Below are positions 26,347-60,446 of a stretch of 64,000 nt of DNA, one piece after another. The notes under the pieces are model-generated. The model saw nothing but the letters and a program-made list of their open reading frames with translations. It ran no database searches and was not told the origin of the DNA. This stretch comes from Procambarus clarkii. Taxonomy: Eukaryota; Arthropoda; Malacostraca; Decapoda; Cambaridae. How positions within the stretch are numbered: the first letter of the stretch is position 1; every line of letters starts with the position of its first letter. A program made the translations under genes and the position numbers. The stretch is from contig NC_091150.1 of the NCBI RefSeq assembly GCF_040958095.1, positions 64,679,368 to 64,743,367 on the forward strand, written 5' to 3'.

Positions 26347-26571
<225 letters not shown>

Positions 26572-28275: not shown

Positions 28276-28347
<72 letters not shown>
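28276..28347. repeat. (TA)n microsatellite, LTR element target
   Basis: TA run that resumes at 35062 after the LTR element, i.e. the element inserted in a microsatellite (4-bp ATAT duplication is compatible but not provable). Confidence 0.85.
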
Positions 28348-28350
<3 letters not shown>

Positions 28351-33129: not shown

Positions 33130-33276
33130 CGTTTCAGTCCCTTAGCTGGTTGAGTAACAGTACCACCGAATTCACTGGCCACACTGTATTAGTACCCTGG
33201 CAACACTTGTCTTGAAATTTGGTCCACACTGTAGCTTGATCCACGCTTCCTGGCGAAGTTCCCAGTTCTTGGCTAC

Positions 33277-33304
33277 TGGGGTTCGAATCCTGGCGAGGTC
33301 GCCA
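33277..33304 (-). promoter_or_regulatory. Primer-binding site, extended tRNA complement
   Basis: Seven bases inside the 5' LTR the minus strand reads TGGCGACCTCGCCAGG and continues as a T-arm complement (ATTCGAACCC). The plus strand therefore equals a tRNA 3' half: GGGTTCGAATCCTGG, acceptor strand, GGTCG, CCA. The GGTCG-CCA end suggests a tRNA-Arg type. A degenerate second copy lies at ~33250-33270. Confidence 0.75.
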
Positions 33305-33311
33305 GTTCTCT

Positions 33312-35057
33312 TGTCACGTGGGGGGGTGGGCGGTCCGGGGCTCTGCTAACACTCGGCTGCTAGGGGCTCAAAGGGCCCAAATACTCAGCCCCTCCGACTC
33401 CCTGGATTCACCGGAGTCTCCTTGGCCACACAAGATAGGACCAACAATGCCCACCTCCGCAGGTCTTTGCTTCCACCACAAAGGGGTGCCACTGATTCAC
33501 CCTGGAAGCCCTTCAGTCAACCACGGGGAAACTGCTGTTAACAGTTCCGGCCTAGACCCGTGGGGGAGTGAAGGAAGACTCAGGCTTACCTATAACCATA
33601 GCCTCTCTGAGTCTTGCCTGCCAGACAAAAAAAAGGTTGCAGGAACTCCTTTCCCGCCTGTCTTCTCTATCTTCCTCTTAGCAAGGTCGCCAGCTGGGTT
33701 ATTATATCTGCACCCCAGCAATGCAGTTCAGTGGGTGTATCATATATCGTTTGTAGCCAGAAATGTATGCTCATAGAGAAATATCACAAATGGAGGCACA
33801 CTCAAACACAGTAATAAAATGTGTGGATTTACTGACGCAAATTACATGAACACACACACACAATCACAAGTAATACATGAATATGGAATATGGATGATGA
33901 GTCTGGAGATCGTCAGCCTCTTCTTCCACGACCTCCAACTCTCCTTCAACTGGGCAGGAAGACAGGAGTCTCACACTCTCACAGGAGGGCCTCTTCCCCA
34001 CGTCGGCACCTCTTCTTCACTGTCCTGCCATCCATACACACTGTCCTCTCTGACAGTCCTGGACACAAGCTGCCTTGCAGCCTATTCTACCATTAAAGCA
34101 ATAAAGTCTTGCTGCCACATACACAAGTAAATATTGTGGCCTAACTAGCCTACTCATACAAGGGGTAATGGGAGGGAAAAATGATCTACCTTACACTCCT
34201 GGCTCACGACGCCTGTCCCTCGATGGTGTGATGGTCCCACGCTTCCTTGGGTCGATCCTCGACGATCCAGGGCGTTCCACAGGTCCTCAGGTGTCGTGAA
34301 GCCTTCGCGTCGTCGCCGTTCCAATCCCTGAGGTTCAGCTGCCCCAATCCTGGTTCATCGATGGGCGCTGAGCTAATCACTATTTTTCCCCACACTCGCC
34401 TCTCCCACAGGGCGTCGCTCCTTGTCCTAGGCACTGTGTCGTCCTTCCAAGATTCTCGGTGGATGTGACCCCAGTCACAGCTAGCTTGCTCGCCCACCTT
34501 CCAGACCTCAACGTCCAGCCAGCGGCGCCGCCCAGCGTCGTCGCCGACTATTTTCCAAGTTTGGGCACTTCTCTGCTCACTGAACTTGGTTCCTCTTTGG
34601 CTTCCCAGAAGCGCAGGGTCTCCAATGACTATGGTGGCTGCGACAGCCAGCTCTATCCACTGAACAAGGCTTGCAGAGCCTCCAATCCCTGAGAGCAGAC
34701 CGAGGCGCGTCCTGTCGCTTCCACGGTCAGTACAACTCTCCCGTTGGCGCCGCCCGGGGCACTCGGTGACGTCATGGCGGGCCCTGATTTGTCGCCCGCG
34801 ACCTACGTCGGCCAATCCGCGATCGGCATAGTGTCCCTTCCACAAGGTCATATCTGCCTTAGGGGATACTGTTTCATTTTATAACAGGGCGCCAATTTTC
34901 CTTTATTTACAACATATAATATAACCTCATTCCATTAAATGGCAGCCGGTCTGGTCGCCACATATATCATTAGACTCCCTGAACCTCAGAGAATCAGTAG
35001 GGAGAGCTGATATGACTCTTTAAGCCGGCAAACGAAAGAAATAGGAGAGGGCACCGT

Positions 35058-35305: not shown

Positions 35306-35483
35306 CCTATATATTTCCTATAAATATGAAACTGGAAAAAGTTCATATATTGATATTCCCACCGATGATTCCAATAGGAAAAGTATAAGAATGTTAGAAA
35401 CCACCCTTCCTAACGTTGTTTATACGCCTCAAATAGGGTTCGTTATCCTTGAAAATAGATGTTGTAATGAAATGTTTGTTTAA

Positions 35484-38420
35484 CCCCTTAACTGCGTTGC
35501 CTCCAAATGTGACAACCCCGCAGTGTGCAGGAAATAAATTCTCTGGAAAAAATTATTTTTCCTTTTTAAAGTGTCAAAAACCCTTCCCTCAGTATGGGTA
35601 TGTAAAAAAAAGTCGAAATTGTACTTACTTTGGCTGCTATGGGGTCCGGAAGTTGGGGCGTGACGTCATCATTCCCCGTGGGCGCGTGCCGTAAGCTCTC
35701 GGAGGTGGTGGGGTGCTCGGGGCGGGGCGCGCGAGTTGCCGCGAATATATTTTCGTTCATTTTTTGCGCACCTTTCCAAATACATTTTCATTGTTTTTAT
35801 GGGCCAATCCAATGTATAATGAACACGTACACTATAATATCGCAGTACAACATCCGTACTGTCCGTAGACACTGTGTTACGTGCATCGCAAACAAGTTCA
35901 CTTATCCTGCACAATTTTCAATGTATCATGCCTAATATATTTATATTTACACTTTATATACACACTGTACAGTATCACACACTATATACACACACCATAA
36001 ACACACTCAGTACTCCGCGAGTGTGTGATATGCAGCGAAACAGCCAACGGGGCCGAGTGGCACCTTGCACTCCACGCACCAGGTGCTGATACATCTTCGT
36101 TTCTGTTCTCTGTGGGTAGTGTTCCTGCATACTAGACGTACGTTTACCCTTCTCCCGTGATGCTGTGCCTAGCATATACTCGAGCATATGTACTCCAAAG
36201 TTCTCATTACCCCTTAATCTGTCTGGAGCTGCATGTGGCATTGTTGCTTGCACTCCGCGCGGTACAACAGAACCCTCCTCGCCATACTTTACTAGCAGCT
36301 GTGACACAACACTAGCACTGAATGTACGTATAGACGGTCTCCTGCCAGATTTTACTAGGTACATATTGAAGCAGTTGAGCACTGCAACATCCATGAGGTG
36401 GAAGAAGAACTTTTTAGTCCACTTCACAGACTTGCGCACGCACTCCACTCCACCAAGCATCATGTCACACTTATCGACGAGGCGCATGTTCACGTTGTAC
36501 TCTATGACACAGTCTGGCTTATACACGGTGTTGCGTGTCTGAAAGTGGACTTTCCCACTGTCCAACATGGCACCGGTGTGAATCGTAGTCAGCATATTCA
36601 CCTCGCGTCTGTCCTTCCACCGCACTGACAGCGTATTGTCACACTTGCGCAGCTGGCACTCACCCACGGCTATAGCTATACCGAACACTGGCATTTCCTT
36701 CCTGTTGCTCTTCACAGTGCCACATACGCCGGTATTGTGGGCAAGGAGGTATCTGGTCAATAAGGGGCTGGTGTAATAGTTGTCGGTGAACAGTACATGC
36801 CCCTTGTTCAGCAACGGTTCCATCAGGGTTTTTACGACACTGCCAGAGAACCCGTGTTCATCTTGAGCCGGTATGTCGACGTCTGTACCAGAATATGATA
36901 TCATGTCCAAGAGAATACCAGTCTCACAGTCGCACAGCACAAAAAACTTCAGTCCAAATCGGTGCCGCTTTGATGGAATGTACTGCTTGAATGCCAGTCG
37001 CCCCTTGAACAGTACAAGCGACTCGTCAATAACCACATTCTGTCCAGGTACAAAATAATCCCTGAACTTCCCCCTCATGTCACTGAACATCTTCCGTACT
37101 TTCCACAATCTGTCGTGTCTGTCCTCATTTGCATTATTCTCGAAATGCAGGCACCTGAGAATCAAGAGAAACCTATCACGCGACATGTACCGGTTGAACA
37201 CGGGGGGTGGAACAAGGCTGTCTTTGCTCCAATAATCCTGGATGACAGCTTTCTCAGAGTGCTTCATCATCATACAGAGTGCCAGAAACACGTAAATTTC
37301 GTCGATTGTCGTGTCCTTCCATCGTGTGAGCCGTGAGGCAGGTAAAATGCCTTCGTCTATGAGGCTGTGAGCGAACCTGTTTGTCTCAGTCACAAGATGC
37401 GTCATGAATACATTGTCAAAATATGCCTGAAAATATTCCATGTTTGCCATATCATCACCAGTATATGGGAATAATGGTGTAACACCAAAATCGCTATCAT
37501 CAAATGTTGGTATTTGAGGGACAAATGTGGTGCAATCCTCCCACACAAGTACACCAGGGGGTTTGGTGTTGGCGCCAACACCACGGCAAACACCACCACG
37601 AGCACCAAAACTACGGCTACGTCGTCCACTACTTCTGCTGGAGCTGCGTGAGGGTATGCTAGGCGCTGAGGCAGATTTACGTACTGTAGACCTACCACGA
37701 ATAAATGATGTTGAGGGGCCACTGTCGTTGTCCACATGCTGTGAGGCACGCTGCCGCCTGCCGCGGCGTGTTGCTGAGGTAGCAAAACCCCGCCTGGTAA
37801 CACCACCACTGTTCGTACTCGGGTCGTCCACACTACTCATATCGGAGCCAATGTCACTGAAGCCCGAGAAAGATTCGTCACATGTACTATCACTGAATAA
37901 ACTACTAGCGTCTGGGGACATACATAATGGTGGTGATGATAACGGTGTTGACCCAGGGCGGCGAGGCAGGTCGGGCGAGGCAGGCCGGGCAAGGCACGTG
38001 TACCACACACACTCGCTACATCTTCCAATTCCGTCTCTTCCTCACTCGTATCAGGTCTCTGAGTTAGGCCTTTCTCTGGATCATAGTCCAGGTCATCATC
38101 CAGAGCACCGTCATCATACAAAATATCGCGTATTTCCTCCTCAGAGAGTCGTTTTCCATGACTGCGGGTCACCGTGGAGCGGGAGCTCGTAGAGGATGCG
38201 TCAGACATGGTTGCTGCTGTGAAACTGAGGCTCCCCACGGCCGCAGGGCATGCTGGGATTTTTTTTTAAGATGGCGGACGATCACTGGGGCCCCCACCCA
38301 CCCATACCATACCCGCGTCACCGCGCGCCAGTTTTGAATGGAACGTGAAAAATCAAAATACCCGGAGGCGCGTTGCGCAAACCAGACGCGAGCCTGCAGG
38401 CGCGTTGCGCAGTTTAAGGG
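35484..38420 (-). mobile_element. piggyBac-type DNA transposon
   Basis: Flanked by TTAA at 35480-35483 and 38421-38424, the diagnostic piggyBac duplication. The inverted ends are CCCCTTAACTGCG (left) and the complement of CGCAGTTTAAGGG (right). Length 2937 bp. It contains one transposase gene on the minus strand. It lies inside a viral-like ORF. Confidence 0.92.
36007..38208 (-). pseudogene. piggyBac transposase, frameshifted
   Basis: The N-terminus starts at ATG 38208 (MSDASSTSSR, acidic region SEEEIRDILYDDG typical of the family). The frame changes near 38000 into the 677-codon frame 38008-35975. The DDE/D core is present: LCDCETGILLD (first Asp), LFTDNYYTSP (second Asp), VDKCDMMLGG (third Asp). 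The C-terminal cysteine-rich domain (C-x2-C ... CVECKVP ... CF ... YHT pattern) is only found in a shifted frame from about 36135 to a stop at 36007-36009, so a second frameshift has removed it. The copy looks inactive. Confidence 0.85.
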
Positions 38421-39536
38421 TTAAAGAATACAATTACATTTTTACCAAATATATTAACTCGAGGTACCAGCACAAACTTTATTGTTGAAAATTCCCTAGG
38501 GAATATTACCCAAATACTATATCATCCATCAGTAAATATTTGGCAGAAATGGTTTAAATTATAATAAATTAAAACAAAAAATTACTACAACATCCACCAA
38601 TGATGTTAATAATCTTAGCAGTGCCTTAAAAAATAAACAGTATAAAAAAGCTTTCCAAATCTATTTAAATTTTGAAAAATCTATTCTAAAGACACTCTTT
38701 ACACACAACAAAATAAAATTTCACTATAAAAATAGTTCAGAGACTCTAAACCCATTTCCTCTGATAATATGTTACACCCTATTTAACTTAGCAATACAAG
38801 AAGATGGGAAAAGAGAGATGAAACAATTTGAACCCGAAGGAAAATGCTCAAGAATTAAATGAATTCTTTAAAAATACCAATAATATCGACCGAATAGTGG
38901 GTTCATCCCTCATTAATGATTTTTTAACTAACCTTATATTTTGTGTGATCAAGGAATTTGAAAACGAAAATATGGACGGACCCAATCATATGAACAGATT
39001 TTTTAGTGTATATAAATTGTTTGAACGGTTTCTATCTACCCTTGAATGTAGTCATCTTCATACACCGAATTCAATCTTTGCCCAACTGATTTACCTTTCT
39101 TATCTGTTATGTAAACGAATGAATGAACTCATTAAATGTTGTGTAAATATGAACACTGTCGCTAGTTCTAAAATAGATGAAATTCAAAATACCTTTCAAA
39201 CTAATTTGACCCAAATGGATAATAATAATAAATTTTGTATGCAACAGTTACATGAATATTATCAACGGCAACTTAAAAATTCTCAAGAGGTCTTTAAAAA
39301 CAACATTGAAGAAATTTATAAAAAACTGAGGAAAGTAAAAATGAATTATGGGAAAGAATTAACTTTTCAAATATCGACACTATAAGCGAAAAAGAATTAA
39401 TGTTAAATAATCAGCTTGAGTTGATAGAACATCTCATACATAATATACCAATGGACGAAAGTGAAGATGATGAAAGTAGTTAATAAGTATTAAAGAAATA
39501 AGAAGACATAATATCGAAATGCAGAGAATTTTATTC

Positions 39537-39758
39537 TTATAGTGAGAAAATTTGTACCCATGTGAGAGGACGACATTGTCTACTGTTTACATGAGCATTT
39601 TCTGCTTCTTGTTTATTTATTAATAGTAACTGATCGTTTTCACATGAAATGACAAAGTAGTCACATTGTATCTTTTCTTTGTTTTCGATAGTCGATGTTA
39701 CTGTCCCAAAGATTTCTTTTTCACAGAAACATACTAAGGATGAGAGAGCTGTCACCAT
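39537..39758 (-). CDS. Small ORF overlapping the 38K-like gene's end
   Basis: A 73-codon frame from ATG 39758, overlapping the end of the preceding frame by ~38 bp. No recognised domain; it contains one CDYFVISCENDQLLL stretch. It may be a separate small gene or the C-terminus of the 38K-like protein after another frame break. Confidence 0.35.
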   Translation of the reverse strand: MVTALSSLVCFCEKEIFGTVTSTIENKEKIQCDYFVISCENDQLLLINKQEAENAHVNSRQCRPLTWVQIFSL

Positions 39759-40712
39759 AAGACAGACACTGGGTTAACTTTCCCTGAGGCGGGGGTTCTG
39801 TTCTTTTGCTACTACTATTATCATCTATTTCTCCATTTAAACCTTTAGAGAGAATAAAAGTATCTATATTTTTTATTTGATGAGGGGGTATATTGAAAGC
39901 TCCAAATTCTTTCACCACATCACGTATTGTATAAGGTTTGATAGATATCAAGCGACTATATTGCTGTTTGACTGTTCCATCATCATCATTTGTCTCTCTC
40001 TCATAACTCTTTTTTTTCTTCCTAAAGCATTATAAACAGCCCAATTATCTATCAGTATTGCTCTCATATCTGAATATTTAGGGTATTTATTGACAATATA
40101 TTTGTATGACTTACTAATACCATATACATTTTTGGATAAAACACAGTCATAATACGTTAGAACATGAGTAAAATATTGACACATGTTCAATAGTGTTAAA
40201 ACATTTTGGATATATGATCGTTTCCCTGCCGACCATAAAATAAGAATGTTATGTTTGTTGGTGGCTTTCATATAATCTAACATTTTATATAAGAATGGGC
40301 GTGTGTACACTGAAGGAAAACTATCTGACAAATTCAATTACAAATGTTGTTGTTCATCATATACAGCTAATGTATTATCAAAATAAAAAACGAGAAGAAC
40401 AGGTGCCTTCTTTTCCTCATTAAGATATCATACATATTTAAAAAAAAACATATCTTGAGAAAAATCTTCAGTATCTAAGCTCTTTTTACTATTAAAATAA
40501 TTATTACAATTATTATCATCGTTGTTTACTGGTGACAATATATTACTAGTAGTAATAGTAGTATTATTAATATCCCTAGTAGTAACAGTAGTAATAGTAG
40601 TATTATTAATATCACTAGTAGTAGCAGTAGTATCATTAGAAGCATCATTAGTAGTAGTTATATTAGAAGGAAAATATGACAAAAGTTGATTTGTACTCAT
40701 ATTCCACGACAT
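39721..40712 (-). pseudogene. HAD/CTD-phosphatase-like gene resembling the viral 38K family, broken
   Basis: The minus strand starts at ATG 40712 with a Thr/Asn-rich N-terminus. The same frame crosses a TGA (40428-40430) and a TAA (40338-40340), then continues to 39948, where an indel in the A8 run near 40010-40018 shifts it to 39951-39721. HAD-type motifs appear in order: motif I as FDNTL (the first Asp of DxDxT reads Tyr), RPFLYKMLDYM, motif II as ILILWSAG, and AILIDNW before the frameshift. This order and the total length (~330 codons) fit the 38K nucleocapsid protein of baculoviruses and nudiviruses, a CTD-phosphatase relative. A cellular NIF/CTD phosphatase is possible but lacks support from the neighbours. 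Confidence 0.55.
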
Positions 40713-40841
40713 TGTATTTTAATGTGTTTAAATTTTATTTTTTTTATTTTAAATAATTTATTTACTTAATTGTCTAACAAGGTAACAATAGGTAACATTG
40801 GATGACCAAATAATGTTGATGGTATATGTTTTATTACTTCC

Positions 40842-41829
40842 TCAATGAAATGTTTGTGTGTTAGAGTGCCGCATTTCCTCAGTGGGCAGTATATGTTTCT
40901 CGAGTAAGCATTTTAAATGAATCATAGCATGGACGATAATAACACAGATATTAAGAGCTGACATTCCCATTCCTTGTAGACTAGTGTTGAACATTTCTCT
41001 ATTAGACACATTTACAAATGTGTTATATAAAATGCGATGTGAACCTAACACTTTATATCGCTTATCTGCTCCTGGCATAACCAAACTGTAGGCATCTAAG
41101 CCACTTACCAGAGACCGGTCATTATTCTTGTTTAATGAATTTTTGTCATCATCTATAATTGTTTTATAAATGCTTTGTAATTCATTTATTGAATAAACAA
41201 TATACACATTATTAGTAATATGGTCAAAGTAAAGATTAATATACTCATAATCTTGAGGATGGAGGAGTTTTCCACTTTGATATCGATTACCCTCTAATGC
41301 CAAATTCAAAATTTCAGTATTTACTTCCATTCTACTCTCCTCGAAATCGACTAAGAGATAATTTCCTGGGGGTGATCTTGATATTTTTTGATTTTCAAAC
41401 CAACCATCAAACAAAAATTGATCAGCAGCTCCAAATAAATTTTCAATTGTTCTAGATGTAAGTTGCTGAGCCACATGTCCCATAAACCTAATCCAGTTAT
41501 GATAAACTTTATTTATAATAAATTGGGCACTTTCATGGGTATATATTAGAGCCGTGATTGGCTCAGCTTTGATAATGTTACTTTTACCTAGACACTCTTC
41601 AATATACTGTAAACGTCTTTCTACTCTAGCTAAGCGTGTTCTTTCCTCTAAATCATAATCATCAATATAAACATCTTTATTAAGGTTGTTTTTTTCGTTT
41701 TTCATTTGACCATCTGTGTTTACACGATATGCGTCACGGGAGGGTAAGAGTCCAGCTGCTGTTTTGACATATGACATACGTTGTTGCTGCTTTCTTCCGT
41801 ATTGATTTGTTTCATTATTTCTTTCTCTA

Positions 41830-41860
<31 letters not shown>

Positions 41861-42056
41861 TAGCTTCTGTTGTTGCAGTTGTTTGTTTTTTTCTACAATT
41901 AATATAAGATTTTTCATTATCACCGGTGCTGTAGATTCCTCCTTTTGAGGAGAAATAGGCCATCGACTCAAGACTTTCTGTTTCTTCTTCTTCTTCTTCT
42001 TCCTCTTGTTTTTCTCTTTTTTTTAACATGTTAGTGTCAAATGTATTATTATGCAT
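40842..42056 (-). CDS. Intact 404-aa orphan ORF in viral-like cluster
   Basis: ATG at 42056; no stop or frameshift. The N-terminal ~110 residues are low-complexity: an acidic run (~16-28), a Thr run and Gln/Arg-rich segments. Residues ~110-404 look globular, with a helical stretch (LEERTRLARVERRLQYIEECLG) followed by mixed alpha/beta sequence without recognised motifs. It is separated by ~235 bp from a divergent intact gene, which could share a bidirectional promoter. Intactness beside broken neighbours could be chance, recent arrival or selection. Function unknown. Confidence 0.6.
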
Positions 42057-42290
42057 TGTTATTTTTTTAATTATTTTTAACTACTTTAAATTTTATTGTA
42101 TTTATAAACACATTCTTTCATGTTCAACTCATTTTCTTGGAAAAGCGTCTCAAATATCTTCATCTTGTTGTGTAATTCTTATACATTTTGGGGGTCTCCC
42201 AATGTTGAACGAGAGACTTAGATGACACCAGCAGCGGAGACAGAGGTAAAATTTTAATATTTTTCAAAAATAATAATAATAATAAATCTG

Positions 42291-42971
42291 ATGGCCAGCT
42301 TATCAACTACGGATATTTTAAAATTACTCGAGGAACAGAAACGGCAAAATGTCAATATGCATTTGCTAGACTTGTACAATCCAAGAAATGATGGAACTGG
42401 AAACAAGGACCTGGATGAGTTTCCGCTGGTATATGATTCCATGTTATATAAGTTTATCATATATATAAAAGAATTCAAATCTAAATTAGGTAGTAATATT
42501 GCTATTATTGAAAAATATAATAAACAGTGCTTATCATATTCCCCTCAATATATATTAGGACATTACCTTTTAGGTGATACAAGTATTAATAGATATTATC
42601 AAGAATTTCAGTGGAAACTAGGTGATATTGGTCAGACTTCGGCTAGTTTTGCCCTAGGTAATATGGTAACCCCTAATTTGGATTATACGATGTGGATTAG
42701 GTCTGAAGATTTACAACTCAATCGTATATTTACTGGTCAAGCATATCTGACAATATCACAAATGCGTCAATTAATAAGTCAGTCACCATACCGAGCTCAT
42801 CAAATATTAGGTTTCAGTGATGTTACCATACCTTCGAAATTTGAAAAACTGGTTAACCAGGAAAATGCTGCTCAATTCTTTAATTTTATTCCATTTCTTC
42901 GTAACCCTCAATCTGTTCATGAAAAAGACATGGTATATATTACCGAAAAAATAGTATATTGTAAAAATTAA
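42291..42971 (+). CDS. Intact 226-aa orphan ORF in viral-like cluster
   Basis: ATG 42291 after a TAATAATAAT stretch; stop TAA 42969-42971. Composition Ile/Gln/Tyr/Asn-rich, no predicted membrane segment, no recognised domain. A middle segment (WKLGDIGQTSASFALGNMV) and the C-terminal half look like a compact helical protein. Divergent to the 404-aa ORF. I do not recognise a family. Confidence 0.6.
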   Translation: MASLSTTDILKLLEEQKRQNVNMHLLDLYNPRNDGTGNKDLDEFPLVYDSMLYKFIIYIKEFKSKLGSNIAIIEKYNKQCLSYSPQYILGHYLLGDTSINRYYQEFQWKLGDIGQTSASFALGNMVTPNLDYTMWIRSEDLQLNRIFTGQAYLTISQMRQLISQSPYRAHQILGFSDVTIPSKFEKLVNQENAAQFFNFIPFLRNPQSVHEKDMVYITEKIVYCKN

Positions 42972-43204
42972 TAAAAAAAGACAAGAAAATGTTTAATAAA
43001 AAATAGTTTATAACTTTTTGAAGCCAAACTTTTGATTTTTATTCTGGTGTGTTGAGAATAATAATAATATTGAAGAAATTTGCTTCTGATTAACTTTTAA
43101 TTGCTTACTTCTCTTTTTTTTTATTTGTCTTTGATTCTATTATTTAACCTCCCTTCAAAGTCGACATAGTCATGAAAAGCTTGTCTAAGTATCGCTGAGT
43201 CGCA

Positions 43205-43905
43205 TCAGCGATCACCATATTCACTTGGTGTTTGGTTCTCCTGGTCGTTCTCTTGCAGGGAACTTGTGATTTCCCTTTGATCAGATGGTGTATATTCCCG
43301 TTTCCATTCATTCTGACCCACTACCATCGCTACCAACATCACCACCCCATGTTTGAGGATAATACCACCAATATCATCCTCAATATTCTCATAAATAGTT
43401 ATTCTTCTCAATATTTTCAATAATCTTTTCAGTCTCTTAACAACTACCCAGTTGAAGTAGCTTCCAGGCCCTACCTGGGAAATAATAATGTTATTCAATT
43501 AATAGTTGTAATTTTTCATCAGTTATAACAAATTTGAATTAAAGCAAACACCTTGTATTCAGTAAGCCAAAAAACCACTCAAGCATCTAATATTTTTACC
43601 GTTGGTAATTTATAATTTAGATCGTTAGGTAAGAAGGGAGCCGAGCGGACAGCACGCAGGACTTGTGATCCTGTGGTCTTGGGTTCGATCCCAGGCGCCA
43701 GCGAGAAACAATGGGCAGAGTTTCTTTCACCCTATGCCCCTATTACCTAGCAGTAAAATAGGTACCTGGGTGTTAGTCAGCTGTCACGGGCTGCTTCCTG
43801 GGGGTGGAGGCCTGGTCGAGGACCGGGCCGCGGGGACACTAAAATGCCCCGAAATCATCTCAAGATAACCTCAAGATAAGATTCATGAAGAATGCTTTAT
43901 ATATC
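43205..43905 (-). repeat. Diverged repeat F, copy 2, interrupted by a SINE
   Basis: The minus strand from ~43900 matches the plus strand at 10600-10875, with the SINE at 43629-43880 inserted between the two halves. A 97-codon frame (43498-43205) includes GPGSYFNWVVVKRLKRLLKI and EWKREYTPSDQRE; the homologous stretch at 10.7 kb is interrupted by stops. A polypyrimidine-AG precedes the GTAGxGCCTGG block in both copies. Origin (viral or transposon) is unknown. Confidence 0.6.
43629..43880 (+). mobile_element. tRNA-derived SINE
   Basis: The 5' end is tRNA-like: box A-like GCCGAGCGGACAGCACGC and box B GGTTCGATCCC at ~43680. The body is a conserved-looking tail (CAGTAAAATAGGTACCTGGG, GTCACGGGCTGC) ending in a tandem TCAAGATAACC. 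The repeat F copy it splits is uninterrupted at 10.6 kb; TCTTA-like bases on both sides suggest the target duplication. Confidence 0.8.
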
Positions 43906-44420
43906 CTCTGGACATTATGGGTCATCATTAATTATCTCTTTGATTACTAACGCTGGTACCATCTACATCCTACTATGTCAACTTTCGTTGTTTCTACACA
44001 AATACACTCTACTTTCATAAATAAATACGTAACAAATATATGATGCTTAATTGCCCCAAGTAGATATATGGCCTTTGAACCCAGTATAACATTTCATTTA
44101 GAGATTGAACCTGGCAATGTATTTCTTAACCCGTCCCACTTAATTATGTACTGTAACTCCGTATAACTAAACTCGAAGGCAAGATCAACAATATTTCTTT
44201 CAAAGTTGAAATAACTTTTAACACACAATCTTGACCGAGTATGTGATAAACATTATCTATCATGTGTGTATATAATTACCTCATTTCTTTTTGTTTACTT
44301 TTTTAAAGAAAGTATAGTATATATGTTTATATATTCACTTAAATATAACTGCATAACATTTTATTTTAGAGAGTGAGACTTTCGCTATATATTTCTGAAC
44401 CAACCTTGCCCCCCAAAAAA
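43906..44420. other. AT-rich spacer, no gene seen
   Basis: About 500 bp of AT-rich sequence upstream of the Cys-rich gene; no convincing reading frame. It may contain the promoter of that gene. Confidence 0.5.
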
Positions 44421-45563
44421 ATGCTGGGTATAATTTATTTTCTTTTACTAATATACTTATTTATATGTACGGTAATTATTGGAGGCGAGACAATACAAAG
44501 AAAATGAAAGTTATTTCACTATGGTATAACCAGACAAAAAAATATGTCATCATTAGAATGGTACATTGATCAGGCTGAAAGTGATGATGTGTTAGATAAT
44601 AATCCCTTATTAATTTTATCAACATTTGGACACCATCAGGATGACAATCATCATCAAGCCTGTAAAGTGTGGGAAGGTATGAAACTAAATCAGTGTTGTA
44701 TATTTTTATCGTCTCCCTTATATTCTAAAGAAGGTAATGAAATATTACCAGCCAGTGCCTCCTGGCATGACGGATATTGGTTTGAAATATCTCCTACTAC
44801 TCCCACAATAATACCTACAGTTCCAGTATGTCCAACCACATTAGGTAAATTAATATGGCAAGATTACCAATATATATGTGAGTGTACAACTCTTGGATTA
44901 TTTATTGGAAAGCATTGTGATCAACCCACGATTAAACTTATTCGGGATAATGGATGTAGAAAAGTTGGATGGATTCATGATCTGAATATTATTGACATAT
45001 CTAAATTCAATCCAGTCAAAGAAGGCATATGTGTGGAATGTTCTGCTCCCAAAACGGTACCGAACATAGAAGGAATGGAACCTTCTTGTATCCCTATTCA
45101 CTTTAGTTCTTCATCTCAAAACTCCACTACACCGAGTAGTAGTAGTAATAGTAATAGTAGTAGTAACCCCTTTTATAAAACAAATGTTCCTTCCGATACC
45201 AAGGCACCTTGTGTGCACGACGCATTGAATCCAAATAAACAGAATGAACTTAATAAATATGTAGAGGGATATGGATGCTCATGTGACTATTACAGTGGCT
45301 ACGTTGAGGCTCTAATTCCTACATTGGTTGGCCTGTTTCGTGAAACAAATTTGATTAGTAATGCCTGTGTAAAAATTGGCCATAACACCAAAGATCCTCA
45401 TCGAGTTGATTTGGCTTATTATACGCTGGAGAATGGTGGCAAACCTTTACAAACTCACACTTACTATGAACTCGAACCCCTTTTCCAATCTCTGATGTCT
45501 CTTAATTTCTTTTTTTTTTTGGGGAGGGGGATATTTACAAAATTCCTTTCTCTAATGAGTTGA
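44421..45563 (+). pseudogene. Membrane-anchored Cys-rich protein, PIF-like (virion entry factor family), broken
   Basis: ATG 44421 begins a ~20-residue hydrophobic segment (signal anchor). An in-frame TGA (44505-44507) separates it from the 339-codon frame that continues from 44544 in the same phase. The ectodomain has about 16 Cys, with spacing such as CECTTLGLFIGKHC, CVECS and CSCDYY, plus a Ser/Asn linker (~190-215). A T-run near 45509-45518 probably shifts the true C-terminus. An N-terminal anchor with a Cys-rich ectodomain and a total near 380 residues fits per os infectivity factors (PIF-1/PIF-2-like) of baculo-, nudi- and nimaviruses, which sit in the virion envelope. This is by pattern only, so another secreted Cys-rich protein is possible. 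Confidence 0.45.
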
Positions 45564-45584
45564 CTGCTTACCATCAACATCCTC

Positions 45585-48500
45585 TTATTTATTTTCAACT
45601 ATTCCTCCCCTTATAATGTTTACATGTCTTTGATTCTTTTTCTCTGTTAATGCCTCGACTTGTCGCCTGCGTTGAGTCTTATCTTTTGCCCTTTGTTTTG
45701 CATCTTTTAATTTTGTTTTATCTCTTTTTTGTGTGGTTGTTTTCTCAACAGTTTCAGGCGAAGAAACTTTCTGAGTGGCGATTGCTTTTAAAATGCTGTC
45801 ATCACCCAATACACTTTCGTACTTAACTTTTAGGTTTTTAAGGAATCAAGGTTTTTCTGCTTCCATATTAGCCTCGTGTAATAACGCAATCGATTTTAAA
45901 TTCTTCTTTTCGTTATCGATAGACACTATTTGATTATTATCCTCATAGTTGTTTATAGAATACGTACCATTTATCAGGGTTAATTTACTAATATTGAATA
46001 GAAGCGGGAAAACGGGTGCTATTTCTATAGCTTCATTTATCATCTGTATGTTTAATATTTCAGATAGCATATCTTGGTGGTTATACATTTCTCGTGAAAA
46101 ATGAAGGTTTAATTGAATGGAACGCCGAAGAATATTATCGTTTATTACCATGACAAGATTCTTATAGAACTGGGCGCAGAATATAAATTCGAAGATATGA
46201 ATTGAAAGTGAAATAAATAATTGCATCATTTCAGATTTGGCCATTTCATTCCTGCAAAACATTTCTCTTATTGAGAGTTTGTCGAATGCTGATCTCAAAT
46301 ACTTATTGTTGCATTTCCCAGCCAAGTAAGCATCGAGCTGAGTAGTGACGGCTTGGATGATCGAAGTGAATTTATTAATTTCAGTTTCTTCATATTCAAT
46401 GGGATCCACCGAAGTCTCATCATGGTTAATCATCGACAAATGCATTCTTGTGTCACTTAATTCTGAAAGCATTTGTTTGTTGGAATCCTGGAGACTAGCA
46501 TTTGTCTGTTGAATGGTCAACAGGTTACAAGTTATTGTTTCATTTCTTTGTTGTAAGGTCCTAATATTTAAATCATTTTGTTGTTGTAAAGCCAGTATTT
46601 CATGAATATTATCAGAAGGGGACTTTGTTACGGATCCGAGTCCAGCGTCCTAGCACGGAGCAGTGACGACAACGCCATCTGTGAGTCTGCTCCCGAAACC
46701 CCTTCCAAATGGACAGCGCCATCTAGTGAGGTCGGGATATACCGGCCACAGGTGCTGGATTCCCGTCTTAATCAGCTCGTAACATAGCCGCTGCTGACCT
46801 CTGGTGAGGTGGCGCTTAGACAGCAACGCCATCTATGGAGTGGATAGGTGGACGTTTGTGTCTAAACCTGTAAGTGAGATGCCCTAAAGCGTCCCTAGTA
46901 CTGATGACGTGTCTGATTACAGAGTCGACCTGGGACTGCTGTATTGGATGGTGGGGCAGTTTACCCAAGGCAGCCATAGTCTCTCCACGAGTTTGCTTTG
47001 AGGAAGCTGTGAGTCACCCCCGGACGGACACTGTTGAATGTGTTAGCCTGCCTGTTATGTGGCAGTACCAGGAATCGTCGTATCTGGGGGCTGGCTGGTG
47101 GAGGAGACTAGCCACTGTGGTGCGGAGAGAGGAGAGTGATCTGCGGAATCACACGAGGCTCCTGCCTAGGGCTCGCTACCCTAGTATCGGTCGTGGAGTG
47201 GCCTACACAGCGGAGCTGATTGGAACCTGCCAGCTACAGGCTGGATTTGTGGTTGAAGGCCTCCACGATGGTGCACCCAATGGGACTGTGATTTGGCTGG
47301 CCTGTGGCCAGGGTAGATTCGCCGATAGAATCAGAGGATTCATCGTGGGCCACGACGAAGAGAACCAGGGCTACTCATCTTGAGCACCGTGGAGCATCCT
47401 GTGTCTTCAGAGGAAGACTAATCTGTATATAATAAGTGTAGTTATAACAACCCTGTATGTGACTGTGATATATTTTTTTATGGTGGTGGTAGCAATATAT
47501 ATACAAAAGCAGTGCATTTGTATCCCTTCCCCTTTAATTTACTTGCGTTACGGAACACACCCCTTGAAAGCCACTACTAACTTGGGGCCGGATACCCAAA
47601 CTCTAATAACATCAGAGAAGAACCCGGTTGCGACCCAATAGGGCCATAACAGACTTACGAATCACGTTCGAGATAATGTAATAAAAGTGTTGTACATTAT
47701 TTGTATTCAAATCTTGCCTTATTTCCTTCTGGAATAATGTATATATAATAGTAACAACTGTATAAACTTTTATAACTTCCTCATTCGTTCCTTTATGATA
47801 TCTTTCCAGGTCAACAATTTGTCTTATTATAATTTCTTTAACTAAAACTATTGATGCCACCACGTCTATTAACAATTTTGCAACATAATTAGGTTCGTCT
47901 AATTGGCGTTTTAAATTAACATTTTCATTTACATAGGGCATTATTTGACGTTCGTGTTCATATACTGTTTCATCGATAATATTAGTTTTAAATTTTTCTA
48001 ATATTTGATTAAATAAATTTCTTTCTTCCTCAATAGTAAAAATATTAAGTATATTATTATTTTGGTGTGGATCATTATTATTAATATTATTTAAACGGGA
48101 AATCCTGTCTCTAATGTCCTTTTCACGATCTCCGTGAATGTAGTTATCACATTCGGTATTCAACTGATGAATGAACTTATTATTGCTTCAATTTGTGATT
48201 TTCCTGTTGCTTTCGATTCATCATCATCTAAAGGAAATATGCTTGAAAAACAATGAATTATATCGCTATTCGATAATGTAGGTTTTGCATAAAGTCGCTC
48301 TAATGTTACAATATTATATTTATTTGCTTCATTTATATTCTTTACTAATGTATTATATTCATCATACTTGATTTTTTTAGAATTTTCACAATCTAGTAGT
48401 TTTTGTTGGCATTCCTGAACATAATGGTTTTGGGATACTAATAAATTATTATATTCTTCTTTTTCTGATAGTTTATCATCTTTGCATTTTTGTAGGGCTT

Positions 48501-49402
48501 GTTGGCATTCCAGAAATTGCATATTCTGGTTCGTTATATCGTTTTCACATGTGGCTAATTTTAGTTGGTATTCTTCAAGAGACATTAAATTTGTATTTAT
48601 TTGTCTATATAATTCTTGTTGTTGTTGACAACTTATAGTTAATTGTTCAAGTGCACTATTTAATTGTTGCTTACATGTTTTTAGGTCATTCTCGAGTGTA
48701 ACGTATTTGGATCTTATTCTAGTATTATTTGAATTTATTAAATTGGTTAGTTTTTCTTTTTCATCAGCTAAGTCTTTTATTTGTTTGTCTTTGTCTTCCG
48801 AGATATGTTGAATTTGTCTGTCTTTCTCATATAACATAAATGCATATTCTATTTCATACTGTTTCTTTTCATCATCGTATTGGATTCTAAGCTTCATTAA
48901 TTCAGTATTGTTTCGATCTTCTAGGTTATTTTTAAATTTATTTTGATTATCTTGAAGAGTTGAATTTTCCTTCTTTAAATTCTCTATTTCATTTTCTTGG
49001 TCTCCTAATTTCTCTGAAAGCTGCACAATAGTAAGTTTAATAGTAATCTCTCACATTTGTATTTAAATCTGTTATTGTGGCATCTTGATTTCCACATTTA
49101 ATTTCTAATTCACTTTTTTCATTCTCGCATTCATTACATTTTTTATTAAAATGAGCTATTGTTTGTTTTTGTTAATTCCGACTCTTAAGAGGATATGTTT
49201 CGGTTATTAATTTAATATATCGATCAGAGATAGTAAACAAATGAAGCATTTTATTCAATAATAGAATCATTCTTTTATCATCATCATTCACAACAACAAA
49301 ATTGTTAATAAGAGTTTTTATGAATATACGTTCTCTCAAACCCGAGGAACCGTCATCTAGGAATGTTATAGTATTCAAGATTGTTTTAACTATTTCACTC
49401 AT
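45585..49402 (-). pseudogene. Large coiled-coil gene, multiply broken and split by a solo LTR
   Basis: Starts at ATG 49402. A TAA at 49172-49174 is followed in the same frame by more coding to ~49045; a frameshift leads to 49026-48160; a further break near 48160 leads to 48163-47657, which meets the solo LTR. After removing LTR plus one duplication (1031 bp) the phase equals that of 46621-45848. That ends in a TGA (45846-45848), beyond which the same frame stays open to 45585 with a Lys/Arg-rich tail. Residues 48160-49026 are strongly coiled coil (Leu, Gln, Glu, Lys heptads); other segments are helical. Ancestral length may approach 900 codons. A structural virion protein is a guess. The breaks could alternatively mark two adjacent genes (boundary near 48160). 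Confidence 0.6.
46626..47651. mobile_element. Solo LTR (1026 bp)
   Basis: Begins TGTTACGGATCC and ends CCATAACA, i.e. TGTTA...TAACA inverted ends. It is flanked by the 5-bp duplication GACTT at 46621-46625 and 47652-47656. GC content is clearly higher than in the host ORF. A 169-codon frame inside (46874-47383) has no recognised homology. It does not match the LTRs at 28-35 kb beyond the terminal bases. A solo LTR results from recombination between the two LTRs of a full element. Confidence 0.9.
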
Positions 49403-49435
49403 TTTTTAAATTATTGGTATAATATAATTCTACGA

Positions 49436-49690
49436 TCAGGTGACAAAAATTAAGCAAGAAAAAGAAGGATGAGTGGTCTGCATTTTTTTGGACTGTCGGA
49501 AAGCCTTTGACACAGAGGCTTGTACATAAGTTGAAGAAACAGGTAAAAGAAACTGGAAGGGTGCTACTAAGTGATAAGGGACTGTCTAAGCAATATGGGT
49601 GAGACCTCCGATTGGCATAGCAAAGGCACCAGTGGAGTCCCACAGGGCTTTATACTCACTATATTCATAAGTTGTTTCAGTGAGGGATGG
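49436..49690 (+). mobile_element. LINE reverse-transcriptase fragment
   Basis: Encodes, with frameshifts and stops, FLDCRKAFDT (RT motif A) and SGVPQGFIL (motif B). It is a short, old CR1/RTE-like fragment bordering the viral-like cluster. Confidence 0.7.
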
Positions 49691-50367
<677 letters not shown>

Positions 50368-51685
50368 ATGCCCCAATCATTTTCAGATTCTTCTCATCAG
50401 CAAATACAACAGTCCAATGTAACTTTACAGTCTACTACATCATTACCAACATTTCAATCACAACATCACAAAGAAAGGCCCCCGAAAATAAATAATGAGA
50501 AGAAACATTATGAATGTTCAGGTTGCAATAAAAAATTCAGATGGCTATGCTTCTTAAAGAGTCATATGAGAGTTCATATGGGCGAAAAACCTTACAAGTG
50601 TACTACATGTGGTGAAAAATACGGATAGCTAAGTTCCTTAAAGAGTCACATGAGAGTTCATATGGGCGAAAAACCTTATAAGTGTTCTACATGTGGGGAA
50701 AAATTTAGATGGCTAAGCTCAGTAAAGATACATATGAGAGTTCATACGGGCGAAGAACCTTACAAGTGTACTACATGTGGGGGAAAATTCAGAGGGCTAC
50801 GCTCTTTAAAGATACATATGAGAGTTCATACAGGCGAAAAACCTTACAAGTGTACTACATGTGCGAAAATTTTTAGTTTTAAATCATGTTTGATTAGACA
50901 TTTGGTAAAACATACAGAGAATAAGCCCTTTAAGTGTCCTATGTGCAGTAAACATTTTAAAGATAAAAATAGTTTGAAGACACATCAGAAAATCCATAAT
51001 GGTGAGAAACCCTTTAAGTGTCCTACATGTGCTAAAAGATTCATCTACCGTACTAGTCTGAAAAATCATCTGAAAATCCATACTGGTGAGAAATCCTTTA
51101 AATGTACAACATGTGGGGAAAAATTTAGATGTCTATGCACCTTAGATACATATGAGAGTTCATACCGGCGAAAAACCTTACAAGTGTACTACATGTGGGG
51201 AAAAATTCAGAGGGTTACGCACCTTAAAGATACATATGAGAGTTCATACAGGCGAAAAACCTCACAAGTGTACTACATGTGGGAAAATTTTTAGTTTTAA
51301 ATCAAGTTTGATTAGACATTTGGTAGTACATACAGAGAAGAAGCCCTTTAAGTGTCCTATGTGTAGTAAACATTTTAAAGTTAAAAATAATTTGAAGACA
51401 CATCAGAAAATCCATAATGGTGAGAAACCTTTTAAGTGCTCTACATGTGCTAAAGAATTCCTCTACCCTACTAGTCTGAAAAAGCATCTAAAAATCCATA
51501 CTGGTGAGAAACCCTTTAAATGTCCTACATGTGCTAAAGAATTCCTCTACCCTACTAGTCTGAAAAAGTATTTGAAAATCCATACTGGTGAGAAACCTTT
51601 TAAGTGCTCTACATGTGCTAAAGGATTCATCCAATATATTAATATGAAAAATCATCTTAATAGTCATCATCAGGTGAATCTTTAA
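50368..51685 (+). pseudogene. C2H2 zinc-finger gene with ~14 fingers, broken
   Basis: ATG 50368 opens a Ser/Gln-rich leader (~45 residues), followed by tandem Krueppel-type fingers (C-x2-C-x12-H-x3-H with HTGEKP-type linkers) to 51685. Finger 2 has a TGG to TAG nonsense change (50626-50628). Finger 8 lost two bases near 51146 (TTAAAGATAC becomes TTAGATAC), shifting the frame. Finger 13 has Tyr in place of the first zinc His. Fingers 4-7 and 9-12 are near copies, so part of the array arose by block duplication. Products of such genes normally bind DNA in the nucleus. The AT-rich, intronless context resembles the viral-like cluster, but host origin is equally possible. Confidence 0.85.
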
Positions 51686-54175: not shown

Positions 54176-54178
<3 letters not shown>

Positions 54179-55045
54179 GACACAGTGTCTCTGCTTAAGG
54201 CACAACTCTCCTAAACACGAGAGTTAAGTATACAACTTTAGAACACTTTCCCACCAGGAGACTCGAACCCTAGCCAGCACAGAAGCCTTCCAGCAACTGG
54301 CATAACAGGTACGCCTTAACCCTCTGCACCACCACTCAGACCCTTAAAAGAGATGGTAATTTCGGAGTATTTAAATACCCCAAAGATCAACACCTCCCAA
54401 GAGCACCAGAGCAAGTGAGGGGTCATTTAGACGTTAATTTCATCAAGTCCCTGTTAATATGGGAAGACACAGTGTCTCTGCTTAAGGCACAACTCTCCTA
54501 AACACGAGAGTTAAGTATACAACTTTAGAACACTTTCCCACCAGGAGACTCGAACCCTAGCCAGCACAGAAGCCTTCCAGCAACTGGCATAACAGGTACA
54601 CCTTAACCCTCTGCACCACCACTCAGACCCTTAAAAGAGATGGTAATTTCGGAGTATTTAAATACCCCAAAGATCAACACCTCCCAAGAGCACCAGAGCA
54701 AGTGAGGGGTCATTTAGACGTTAATTTCATCAAGTCCCTGTTAATATGGGAAGACACAGTGTCTCTGCTTAAGGCACAACTCTCCTAAACACGAGAGTTA
54801 AGTATACAACTTTAGAACACTTTCCCACCAGGAGACTCGAACCCTAGCCAGCACAGAAGCCTTCCAGCAACTGGCATAACAGGTACGCCTTAACCCTCTG
54901 CACCACCACTCAGACCCTTAAAAGAGATGGTAATTTCGGAGTATTTAAATACCCCAAAGATCAACACCTCCCAAGAGCACCAGAGCAAGTGAGGGGTCAT
55001 TTAGACGTTAATTTCATCAAGTCCCTGTTAATATGGGAAGACACA
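54176..55045 (-). repeat. Family-A tRNA-like array, left (reverse) arm
   Basis: Three units with a 287-bp period in reverse orientation to 1.1-2.6 kb. Units carry TCTGCACC-type differences from the first array, so the two arrays were homogenised separately. Confidence 0.92.
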
Positions 55046-56096
55046 TGACCCCTCACTTGCTCTGGTGCTCTTGGGAGGTGTTGATCTTTGGGGTATTTAA
55101 ATACTCCGAAATTACCATCTCTTTTAAGGGTCTGAGTGGTGGTGCAGAGGGTTAAGGCGTACCTGTTATGCCAGTTGCTGGAAGGCTTCTGTGCTGGCTA
55201 GGGTTCGAGTCTCCTGGTGGGAAAGTGTTCTAAAGTTGTATACTTAACTCTCGTGTTTAGGAGAGTTGTGCCTTAAGCAGAGACACTGTGTCTTCCCATA
55301 TTAACAGGGACTTGATGAAATTAACGTCTAAATGACCCCTCACTTGCTCTGGTGCTCTTGGGAGGTGTTGATCTTTGGGGTATTTAAATACTCCGAAATT
55401 ACCATCTCTTTTAAGGGTCTGAGTGGTGGTGCAGAGGGTTAAGGCGTACCTGTTATGCCAGTTGCTGGAAGGCTTCTGTGCTGGCTAGGGTTCGAGTCTC
55501 CTGGTGGGAAAGTGTTCTAAAGTTGTATACTTAACTCTCGTGTTTAGGAGAGTTGTGCCTTAAGCAGAGACACTGTGTCTTCCCATATTAACAGGGACTT
55601 GATGAAATTAACGTCTAAATGACCCCTCACTTGCTCTGGTGCTCTTGGGAGGTGTTGATCTTTGGGGTATTTAAATACTCCGAAATTACCATCTCTTTTA
55701 AGGGTCTGAGTGGTGGTGCAGAGGGTTAAGGCGTACCTGTTATGCCAGTTGCTGGAAGGCTTCTGTGCTGGCTAGGGTTCGAGTCTCCTGGTGGGAAAGT
55801 GTTCTAAAGTTGTATACTTAACTCTCGTGTTTAGGAGAGTTGTGCCTTAAGCAGAGACACTGTGTCTTCCCATATTAACAGGGACTTGATGAAATTAACG
55901 TCTAAATGACCCCTCACTTGCTCTGGTGCTCTTGGGAGGTGTTGATCTTTGGGGTATTTAAATACTCCGAAATTACCATCTCTTTTAAGGGTCTGAGTGG
56001 TGGTGCAGAGGGTTAAGGCGTACCTGTTATGCCAGTTGCTGGAAGGCTTCTGTGCTGGCTAGGGTTCGAGTCTCCTGGTGGGAAAGTGTTCTAAAG

Positions 56097-56098
<2 letters not shown>
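55046..56098 (+). repeat. Family-A tRNA-like array, right (forward) arm
   Basis: Forward units with the same 287-bp period, joined head-to-head with the left arm at about 55045 (GAAGACACA|TGACCCCTCAC). Ends in (TA)n. Confidence 0.92.
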
Positions 56099-56155
<57 letters not shown>

Positions 56156-57430: not shown

Positions 57431-57449
57431 TGCCTCCTTCAGCTCCTGC

Positions 57450-58094: not shown

Positions 58095-60446
<2,352 letters not shown>

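What the first reader, a model, noticed from the sequence alone, without database searches (positions are those of the whole stretch)
35318..49402. Decaying cluster of virus-like genes (endogenous large dsDNA virus candidate)
About six consecutive AT-rich, intronless genes on alternating strands with short spacers sit inside repeat-rich host DNA. One resembles the 38K HAD family, one resembles membrane-anchored Cys-rich PIFs, one is a long coiled-coil protein, and two are intact orphan ORFs. This architecture is typical of nudi-, nimavirus or related genomes; endogenous nimavirus-like and nudivirus-like DNA is known in crustaceans. Combination and gene order could define a lineage not yet described.
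Basis: partly seen in the sequence, partly recalled or inferred. Interest (0 to 1): 0.9.

Follow-up and report, generated by a model that had tools for sequence, protein, structure and literature searches.

The report
Decayed endogenous crustacean DNA virus copy
The gene cluster is one broken copy of a large DNA virus that has inserted itself many times into this crustacean's chromosomes; a sister lineage with mostly intact genes multiplied recently in the same genome.

Summary
Window 35319-35483 plus 38421-49402 is a decayed copy of a repeated endogenous large DNA virus in a 4.03 Gb crustacean genome, probably a crayfish (inferred). The piggyBac between the two parts came later (TTAA duplication). 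Five other loci carry the block or parts of it, two in the whole order helical gene / 38K-like / 404-aa / 226-aa / PIF-like. At 14 loci the left end was read; 12 have (AT)n within 60 bases, against 4% of window positions. A diverged sister lineage has tens of near-identical, mostly open copies of the PIF-like gene (79 scored, 59 without stops), the 38K-like gene, the 226-aa gene and a tyrosine recombinase, linked far above chance. Coding constraint is visible between lineages (dN/dS 0.21-0.32). PIF and 38K affinity is indicated, not proven: a low-confidence fold search put baculo-, hytrosa- and nudivirus PIFs on top, and the HAD protein matches the general family NIF. The virus family is open; nimavirus giant transposable elements are the closest known kind.

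The parts
35319..35483 (.). left-hand fragment of the viral element (about 400 bp inside the left end, which this copy has lost)
   Evidence: L016 828-992 and L019 600-764 match at 95-97% and run directly into window 38421
35484..38420 (-). piggyBac transposon inserted into the viral element; transposase ORF 35975-38008; NOT viral
   Evidence: Pfam DDE_Tnp_1_7 1.4e-83; TTAA on both sides and similar CCC..TTAA ends; absent from L016 and L019
38536..39385 (+). gene A, orphan protein of helical look, split over two frames in this copy
   Evidence: ORFs; same gene in L016 and L019, its end in L020
39721..40712 (-). 38K-like / NIF-type HAD gene, broken into several frames here; intact 396-aa relative in lineage B
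   Evidence: NIF 3.1e-7 and DUF705 3.2e-5 for 39948-40337; frames; lineage B ORF, NIF 1.2e-11
40769..42056 (-). 404-aa-class gene, nearly intact; last about 30 residues in another frame
   Evidence: 3 relatives at 57-85% identity; frame change
42291..42971 (+). 226-aa gene, intact orphan; 151 matches in this genome, a lower bound
   Evidence: dN/dS lineage A vs B 0.21
43635..43873 (.). tRNA-SINE-like insertion (type by eye)
   Evidence: absent from L015, L016, L019; flanked by AGGTAAGA / AGATAAGA
44421..45501 (+). PIF-like gene (hydrophobic N-terminus, Cys-rich ectodomain); in-frame stop near the start, 3' third lost
   Evidence: P0005 residues 1-357 of 550 align here with one stop; 9 relatives; BFVD fold search
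45846..49402 (-). long coiled-coil gene in several frames, interrupted by an insert; start at 49402 read by eye
   Evidence: ORFs 45846-46649, 47612-48187, 48160-49050; collinear in the C64 copy L015/L017
46626..47651 (.). GC-rich insertion inside the coiled-coil gene
   Evidence: L017 joins window 46625 to 47652
49403..50799 (.). right-hand stretch shared with the C64 copy, including (AT)n and the first part of a C2H2 zinc-finger array; element part or shared flank not settled
   Evidence: L017 269-3346 matches 47652-50799 at 94-95%

Best explanation
The cluster is one decayed germline copy (lineage A) of a large, integrating, naldaviricete-like dsDNA virus that behaves in its host genome as a giant transposable element. 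SHOWN: lineage A copies start at the same terminus at 14 loci with different outer sequence, 12 of them within 60 bases of an (AT)n microsatellite; they are broken in different ways; the window copy carries a piggyBac, a SINE-like and a GC-rich insert that other copies lack, and has lost part of its PIF-like gene. SHOWN: a sister lineage B has tens of near-identical copies of the same genes, mostly open, linked with one another (PIF to 38K-like mostly 12-17 kb; PIF to 226 often 114-146 kb), with a tyrosine recombinase beside the 226-aa gene. INFERRED: the virus replicates its DNA, the recombinase (or another enzyme in lineage A) inserts it into microsatellites of the germline, and new copies come from germline re-infection or spread within cells; the PIF-like envelope protein serves entry by mouth and the HAD protein serves nucleocapsid assembly, as PIFs and 38K do in baculoviruses (recalled). 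Coding constraint on the PIF-like gene within lineage B suggests that copies pass through a stage in which the protein is needed, that is, a virus particle.
For: Same block at five further lineage A loci, whole order in L016 and L019, parts in L015/L017, L020, L021, 93-97% nt identity to the window. Termini: of 14 loci, 5 directly abut (AT)n of 10 or more units and 7 have it 18-34 bases away across A/T-rich sequence; 2 (L067, L072) are AT-rich without it; 4.3% of window positions have such an array within 60 bases on a given side. Copies: 226-aa gene 151 matches, 150 of 237 candidates scored; PIF-like 79 scored of 427 candidates, 59 without stops; 38K-like 150 scored of 266; recombinase 84 scored of 4617, 97-100% identical, 69 without stops. 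Linkage: 25 of 79 PIF copies have a 226 copy within 160 kb (0.93 expected); 54 of 79 have a 38K-like copy within 100 kb (0.59 expected), 30 of the 79 on the same strand 12.4-16.7 kb downstream. Recombinase: Phage_integrase 3.4e-5, XerA 3.6e-5, both below curated cut-offs. PIF: six of BFVD ranks 1-9 are PIF-2 or PIF-1 (best E 2.5e-3, prob 1.00), while the PDB search of the same model gave only noise. Constraint: 226 gene A vs B dN 0.118, dS 0.563; PIF window vs B 0.105/0.330; nine B PIF copies at even ranks 0.31; one pair sharing the PIF truncation 1.02. Homologues at 66-72% identity in the Astathelohania contejeani assembly, whose spores came from crayfish muscle (PMC7849709).
Against: No family-level marker (DNA polymerase, p74, p33) was found: Baculo_p74 gave no match, with a control that did not ring; the others were not searched. 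The PIF model has mean pLDDT 42, no BFVD hit reaches E 0.001 and TM-scores to the PIF hits are 0.10-0.28. The intact 38K-like protein matches the general family NIF, not DUF705. The recombinase has no PDB match by sequence and was seen in lineage B only, the (AT)n termini in lineage A only. The 114-146 kb spacing may include host transposons; 19 sparse probes round one B copy on C27 held none of the window's genes and looked viral, by eye, only from about -35 to +10 kb. The chance figures for linkage assume evenly spread copies. dN/dS within B for the 226-aa gene is 0.52, and the 1.02 rests on one pair.
Confidence: 0.87

Rival explanations
1. It is a divergent member of Nimaviridae: a crayfish counterpart of the endogenous nimaviruses of shrimps, crabs and isopods.
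For: Same life style as in PMC10871703 (abstract, sections 5 and 12 and passages seen): crustacean host, tens to hundreds of copies, mostly intact coding sequences in the assembled genomes, tyrosine recombinase in many, (AT/TA)n targeting in the sesarmid crab viruses; PIFs conserved in nimaviruses. WSSV-like integrated sequence is reported for the lobster Homarus americanus, also Astacidea (PMC10454600, passages).
Against: nr and UniRef were among the sources of the protein search, yet the only named hits were A. contejeani proteins (short-word search, so distant relatives can be missed). 38K is listed for baculo- and nudiviruses only (PMC10271883 Table 2, passages). No nimaviral core gene was tested.
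Confidence: 0.35
2. It belongs to the lefaviral side (nudivirus- or filamentovirus-like), as a 38K homologue would suggest.
For: DUF705 match of the window fragment above the cut-off (that DUF705 is the baculoviral 38K family is recalled); PIF-2/PIF-1 of baculo-, hytrosa- and nudiviruses at the top of the fold search.
Against: The intact homologue does not match DUF705 at E<=1; no Pfam PIF model matched any of 9 relatives; Baculo_p74 not found (inconclusive).
Confidence: 0.2
3. The sequences are microsporidian: the A. contejeani proteins are real parasite genes and the window is contaminated or laterally acquired.
For: The only named homologues carry A. contejeani names, and that assembly was screened for contamination with three programs.
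Against: Copies lie inside multi-megabase contigs of a 4.03 Gb genome, among host repeats and with transposons inside. The A. contejeani library came from crayfish muscle and its GC (27%) is close to that of the viral genes, so crayfish or viral contigs could pass the screening (inference).
Confidence: 0.03
4. The high copy number comes from host segmental duplication or assembly artefact, not from an element that inserts itself.
For: The window and the C64 copy share the same PIF truncation and a common right-hand stretch to 50799; some B copies lie close together on one contig.
Against: 14 left termini start at the same base (one of them at base 2 of the query) with different outer flanks; lineage B copies are on many contigs at different positions.
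Confidence: 0.05

Closest known systems
Endogenous nimaviruses as giant transposable elements (majani-, pemoni-, clopo-, whispoviruses; Kawato et al. 2023, PMC10871703)
   Same: crustacean germline, high copy number, large dsDNA genomes, tyrosine recombinase in many, insertion into simple repeats, PIF genes kept
   Different: no named nimaviral protein met by the protein search; a 38K-like HAD gene; here the lineage at (AT)n and the recombinase-bearing lineage are related, whereas in that paper the (AT/TA)n viruses use a Ginger2-like DDE integrase with a 46-bp inverted repeat
Sesarmid crab nimaviruses SiNMV and CdNMV
   Same: integration into (AT/TA)n
   Different: their 46-bp terminal repeat as printed does not resemble the terminus seen here (by eye); a scan of the window and the loci held at the time, both strands, found no inverted copy of our terminus (28 bases, up to 7 mismatches; it also missed L019, whose copy has a 2-base gap)
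Nudiviruses and baculoviruses
   Same: PIF-2/PIF-1-like by fold search; a HAD protein as 38K is
   Different: no Pfam PIF match; not shown to have lef genes; not known to me as high-copy microsatellite-targeting elements (recalled)
Astathelohania contejeani 'hypothetical proteins' TCON_1622, TCON_2073, TCON_2119
   Same: 66-72% identical relatives of three of the genes
   Different: named as microsporidian; most likely crayfish or viral contamination (inferred); the three lie on separate contigs (25.6, 16.3, 15.7 kb)

Membership tests
Naldaviricetes | pif genes (pif0, 1, 2, 3, 5) | tested here: inconclusive
   one PIF-like gene by fold search of a poor model; no Pfam PIF match; Baculo_p74 no match, control silent; Pfam PIF in the genome not answered
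Naldaviricetes | DNA polymerase and p33 sulfhydryl oxidase | not tested
   no search was made
Naldaviricetes | enveloped rod-shaped nucleocapsids, nuclear replication | not testable with these tools
   needs virions
Nimaviridae | nimaviral core genes (31-gene set in PMC10871703, passages) | not tested
   no nimaviral reference proteins were at hand; the protein searches named none
Nimaviridae-type giant transposable elements | many germline copies of a large viral genome with genes intact in recent copies | tested here: met
   size of one whole element not measured
Nimaviridae-type giant transposable elements | sequence-specific insertion into simple repeats | tested here: met
   12 of 14 lineage A left ends within 60 bases of (AT)n, background 4.3%; lineage B ends not found
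Nimaviridae-type giant transposable elements | virus-encoded integrase | tested here: met
   tyrosine recombinase in lineage B: Phage_integrase 3.4e-5, XerA 3.6e-5, both below curated cut-offs; 84 copies scored; not seen in lineage A
Baculoviridae/Nudiviridae 38K | 38K-family HAD protein | tested here: inconclusive
   window fragment DUF705 3.2e-5, intact homologue NIF only
Nudiviridae/Baculoviridae (Lefavirales) | lef-4, lef-8, lef-9 | not tested
   no search was made
piggyBac (35484-38420) | DDE_Tnp_1_7 transposase and TTAA target duplication | tested here: met

The most novel reading that the evidence does not exclude
A family-level lineage of large DNA virus, outside the described nimaviruses and nudiviruses, lives in crayfish chromosomes as a recently active giant transposable element: it uses a tyrosine recombinase to enter (AT/TA)n microsatellites, keeps a PIF-type entry gene under selection (so copies still pass through particles), and has split within one host genome into an old decayed and a young expanding lineage with different gene orders.
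Probability: 0.4. Interest if true: 0.92.

Novelty: new variant of a known kind. Interest (0 to 1): 0.8.

Why it matters
Endogenous nimaviruses suggested that large viruses can live as prophage-like giant transposable elements in crustaceans. This is a similar system with an unrelated-looking gene set, very high copy number and a recent burst. It makes testable whether such elements still make particles: entry genes can be compared for selection among dozens of copies of one genome. It also warns that proteins filed as microsporidian in public databases may be viral.

Tried and rejected
IMG/VR scans with the 226-aa, PIF-like (alignment), 404-aa and HAD proteins found no relative. PDB sequence searches gave nothing useful. 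AlphaFold of the 226-aa protein (pLDDT 47) and its fold search say nothing. Host-gene or transposon origin of the cluster was rejected: apart from the piggyBac and the NIF match of the HAD frame no Pfam family reached its cut-off, and the block recurs as a unit. Telomere-repeat targeting was considered because (TAACC)n arrays lie in the window; the lineage A ends are mostly at (AT)n instead. The (AT)n at 35062 and 49913 were considered as the ends of the window copy and dropped: homology to other copies starts at 35319 and runs across 49913 into 50799. In one search two loci (L006, L007) were read on the wrong strand; its within-A and A-vs-B means are void and were redone. The first PIF comparison within lineage B (top four hits, ratio 0.06) is biased by choice of best hits; nine copies at even ranks replaced it. 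A first count of 13 of 14 ends at A/T-only sequence was replaced by a stricter one, 12 of 14 with (AT)n of 10 or more units within 60 bases.
Full report
What is there. The region holds AT-rich, intronless frames on both strands. Above curated cut-offs Pfam finds two known things: a piggyBac transposase (35975-38008, 1.4e-83) and a HAD frame (39948-40337; NIF 3.1e-7, DUF705 3.2e-5). The other frames of the cluster have only sub-threshold matches.

Relatives elsewhere. The protein search gave 4 relatives for the 226-aa ORF, 9 for the PIF-like ORF and 3 for the 404-aa ORF. In each case one is a 'hypothetical protein' of the microsporidian Astathelohania contejeani (66-72% identity, on contigs of 15.7, 16.3 and 25.6 kb). 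That assembly was made from spores taken with a needle from muscle of the crayfish Austropotamobius pallipes, at median depth 3,663 and 27% GC, and was screened for contamination with BlobTools, MaxBin and PhylOligo (PMC7849709; part 1 of 2 of the text read). I still read these as crayfish or viral contigs in a parasite assembly (inference). Two unnamed entries, P0002 and P0005, are up to 99.6% identical to genes of this same genome. Six more PIF-like relatives at 33-37% identity (P0008-P0013) show further lineages. IMG/VR gave none.

PIF-like gene. The full-length relatives (472-555 aa) share 11 cysteine columns, present in 10 of 10 sequences; six of the nine have a strongly hydrophobic N-terminus by my 19-residue score, three not. 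An AlphaFold model of P0006 is poor (pLDDT 42). Even so, Foldseek against viral models ranks PIF-2 of a baculovirus first (E 2.5e-3, probability 1.00), with PIF-1 at ranks 2 and 3 and PIF-2 of hytrosa- and nudiviruses at ranks 5, 8 and 9; ranks 4 and 6 have no name and rank 7 is an adenovirus fibre. The same model against the PDB gives noise. No hit reaches E 0.001, and TM-scores are 0.10-0.28. I take it as a PIF-1/PIF-2-type protein, probable and not proven.

Whole-genome evidence. The window is G000:C1:64679368-64743367 of a 4.03 Gb genome. The 226-aa gene has 151 matches (150 of 237 candidates scored): by eye, about 20 at 83-94% identity to the window (lineage A) and most of the rest at 74-80% (lineage B), many with identical scores. 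P0006 finds 79 PIF-like copies (79 of 427 candidates scored), all covering at least residues 23-534 of 549, 59 of 79 without stops. The HAD fragment finds 150 (150 of 266 candidates scored), many with open frames of about 400 aa. All these counts are lower bounds.

Lineage A. L016 (C17) and L019 (C15) carry gene A, the HAD gene, the 404-aa gene, the 226-aa gene and the PIF-like gene in the window's order; L020 (C73) has the end of gene A, HAD, 404 and 226; L015 with L017 (C64) has 404 / 226 / PIF / coiled coil; L021 (C4) has part of 404, 226 and PIF. Nucleotide identity to the window is 93-97%. In the copies compared the frames break in different places. The piggyBac is absent from L016 and L019, the SINE-like piece from L015, L016 and L019, and the GC-rich piece from L017; duplicated target bases at the first two mark them as insertions. 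The PIF 3' end is present in L016 and in part in L021, but is missing at the same junction (45501) in the window and in C64, so these two share a deletion derivative.

Ends. L016, L019 and L020 stop matching at one sequence next to (TA)n while their outer flanks differ. A DNA search with that end listed 58 matches (40 of 189 candidates scored), 14 of them running from base 1 or 2 to 290. Flanks of these 14 loci were read (L065 is the same place as L016 and is counted once). Five directly abut (AT)n of 10 or more units, seven have it 18-34 bases away across A/T-rich sequence that may belong to the element's own end, and two (L067, L072) are AT-rich without it. In the window 4.3% of positions have such an array within 60 bases on a given side. 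Lineage A therefore mostly entered (AT/TA)n microsatellites. The window has lost this end: its homology begins at 35319.

Lineage B. Six 9.9-kb stretches round B copies are 96-99.7% identical to one another in alignments of 1.8 kb or more; shorter pieces against L014 go down to 93.7%. One of them, L011, is packed with ORFs. L011 carries a RING protein and, at 8287-9834, a 515-aa tyrosine recombinase (Phage_integrase 3.4e-5; XerA 3.6e-5; both below curated cut-offs; no PDB match by sequence; the R, H-x-x-R and Y motifs were seen by eye, from recall). It has 84 scored copies at 97-100% identity, 69 without stops. L059 carries an intact 396-aa HAD protein just after the 3' end of the 404-aa gene, the window's order; it matches NIF at 1.2e-11 and not DUF705.

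Linkage. 25 of 79 PIF copies have a 226 copy within 160 kb (0.93 expected if copies were evenly spread); 11 share one layout at 114-146 kb, and two pairs, on C16 and C49, lie 2.9 and 1.8 kb apart as in the window. 54 of 79 have a HAD copy within 100 kb (0.59 expected), 30 of the 79 on the same strand 12.4-16.7 kb downstream. Lineage B is thus a large element whose gene order differs from lineage A. The spacing may include host transposons: 19 sparse probes round one B copy on C27 held none of the window's genes and, by eye, looked host-like beyond about -35 and +10 kb.

Selection and age. For the 226-aa gene, 8 A and 6 B copies give dN/dS 0.21 between lineages (48 pairs), 0.47 within A, 0.52 within B. 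For the PIF-like gene, window against four B copies gives 0.32, and window against L015, which share the truncation, 1.02 (one pair, few differences). Nine B copies at every eighth rank of the 79, two of them with stops, give 0.31 (36 pairs that are not independent; 0.38 for the 21 pairs of the seven without stops). So coding constraint acted while the lineages diverged and among recent B copies, and the one pair available suggests that it ended after truncation. Mean dS is about 0.02 within B PIF and 0.07 within A 226; with a recalled, uncertain neutral rate near 3e-9 per site and year these are a few and about ten million years.

How it works. Best reading: an integrating large DNA virus whose genome is inserted into microsatellites by its own recombinase, spreads in the germline, and decays where it lands. 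Shown: copies, left ends, linkage, constraint, later insertions. Inferred: particle stage, PIF and HAD functions, recombinase use in lineage A, crayfish host.

Compared with known systems. Kawato et al. 2023 (PMC10871703; abstract, sections 5 and 12 and passages seen) describe 27 endogenous nimaviruses with 22-477 copies per haploid genome, tyrosine recombinases at telomere repeats or 28S rDNA, and Ginger2-like integrases at (AT/TA)n. The words crayfish, Procambarus and Cherax do not occur in its main text. WSSV-like integrated sequence is reported for the American lobster, also Astacidea (PMC10454600, passages). Three searches found no paper: crayfish with Naldaviricetes; crayfish with 'large DNA virus', endogenous and genome assembly; 'crayfish genome' with 'endogenous viral' and nudivirus; the listings showed no title on such an element in crayfish. 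The library holds open-licence papers only, so this does not show absence from print. The system works like the nimavirus elements; that it is a nimavirus has not been tested on core genes.

Noticed in passing
window 50368-51685: C2H2 zinc-finger array just right of the cluster; its first part (to 50799) is shared with the C64 viral copy (L017), so it may be viral cargo or a shared flank.
   Followed up: partly
P0003, P0006, P0015: Proteins filed under the microsporidian Astathelohania contejeani (TCON_2119, TCON_2073, TCON_1622) are relatives of these viral genes; probable contamination of a public genome.
   Followed up: partly
P0008-P0013: PIF-like proteins at 33-37% identity on unnamed ENA contigs up to 10.7 kb: further unexplored lineages.
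   Followed up: no
L015/L017 and window 45501: The same PIF-to-coiled-coil deletion junction in two distant loci: a defective form that spread, or an old duplication.
   Followed up: partly
G000:C58:399215-588788: Five 226-aa copies within 190 kb, both strands; other B copies also lie in the first megabase of their contigs (C13, C21, C31, C46, C124). Clustering not tested.
   Followed up: no
window 1107-2630, 14173-15201, 21737-24305, 54176-56103: 252-288 bp satellite arrays with near-identical units.
   Followed up: no
window 11802-13784, 25075-26728, 56504-57490, 60157-63087: Penelope-type reverse transcriptase and GIY-YIG-like pieces, read by eye.
   Followed up: no
window 28276-29914 and 33240-34878: Two copies of a block with identical ORFs flanking a Gag-like ORF (30958-33141), read by eye: probable LTR retrotransposon.
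   Followed up: no
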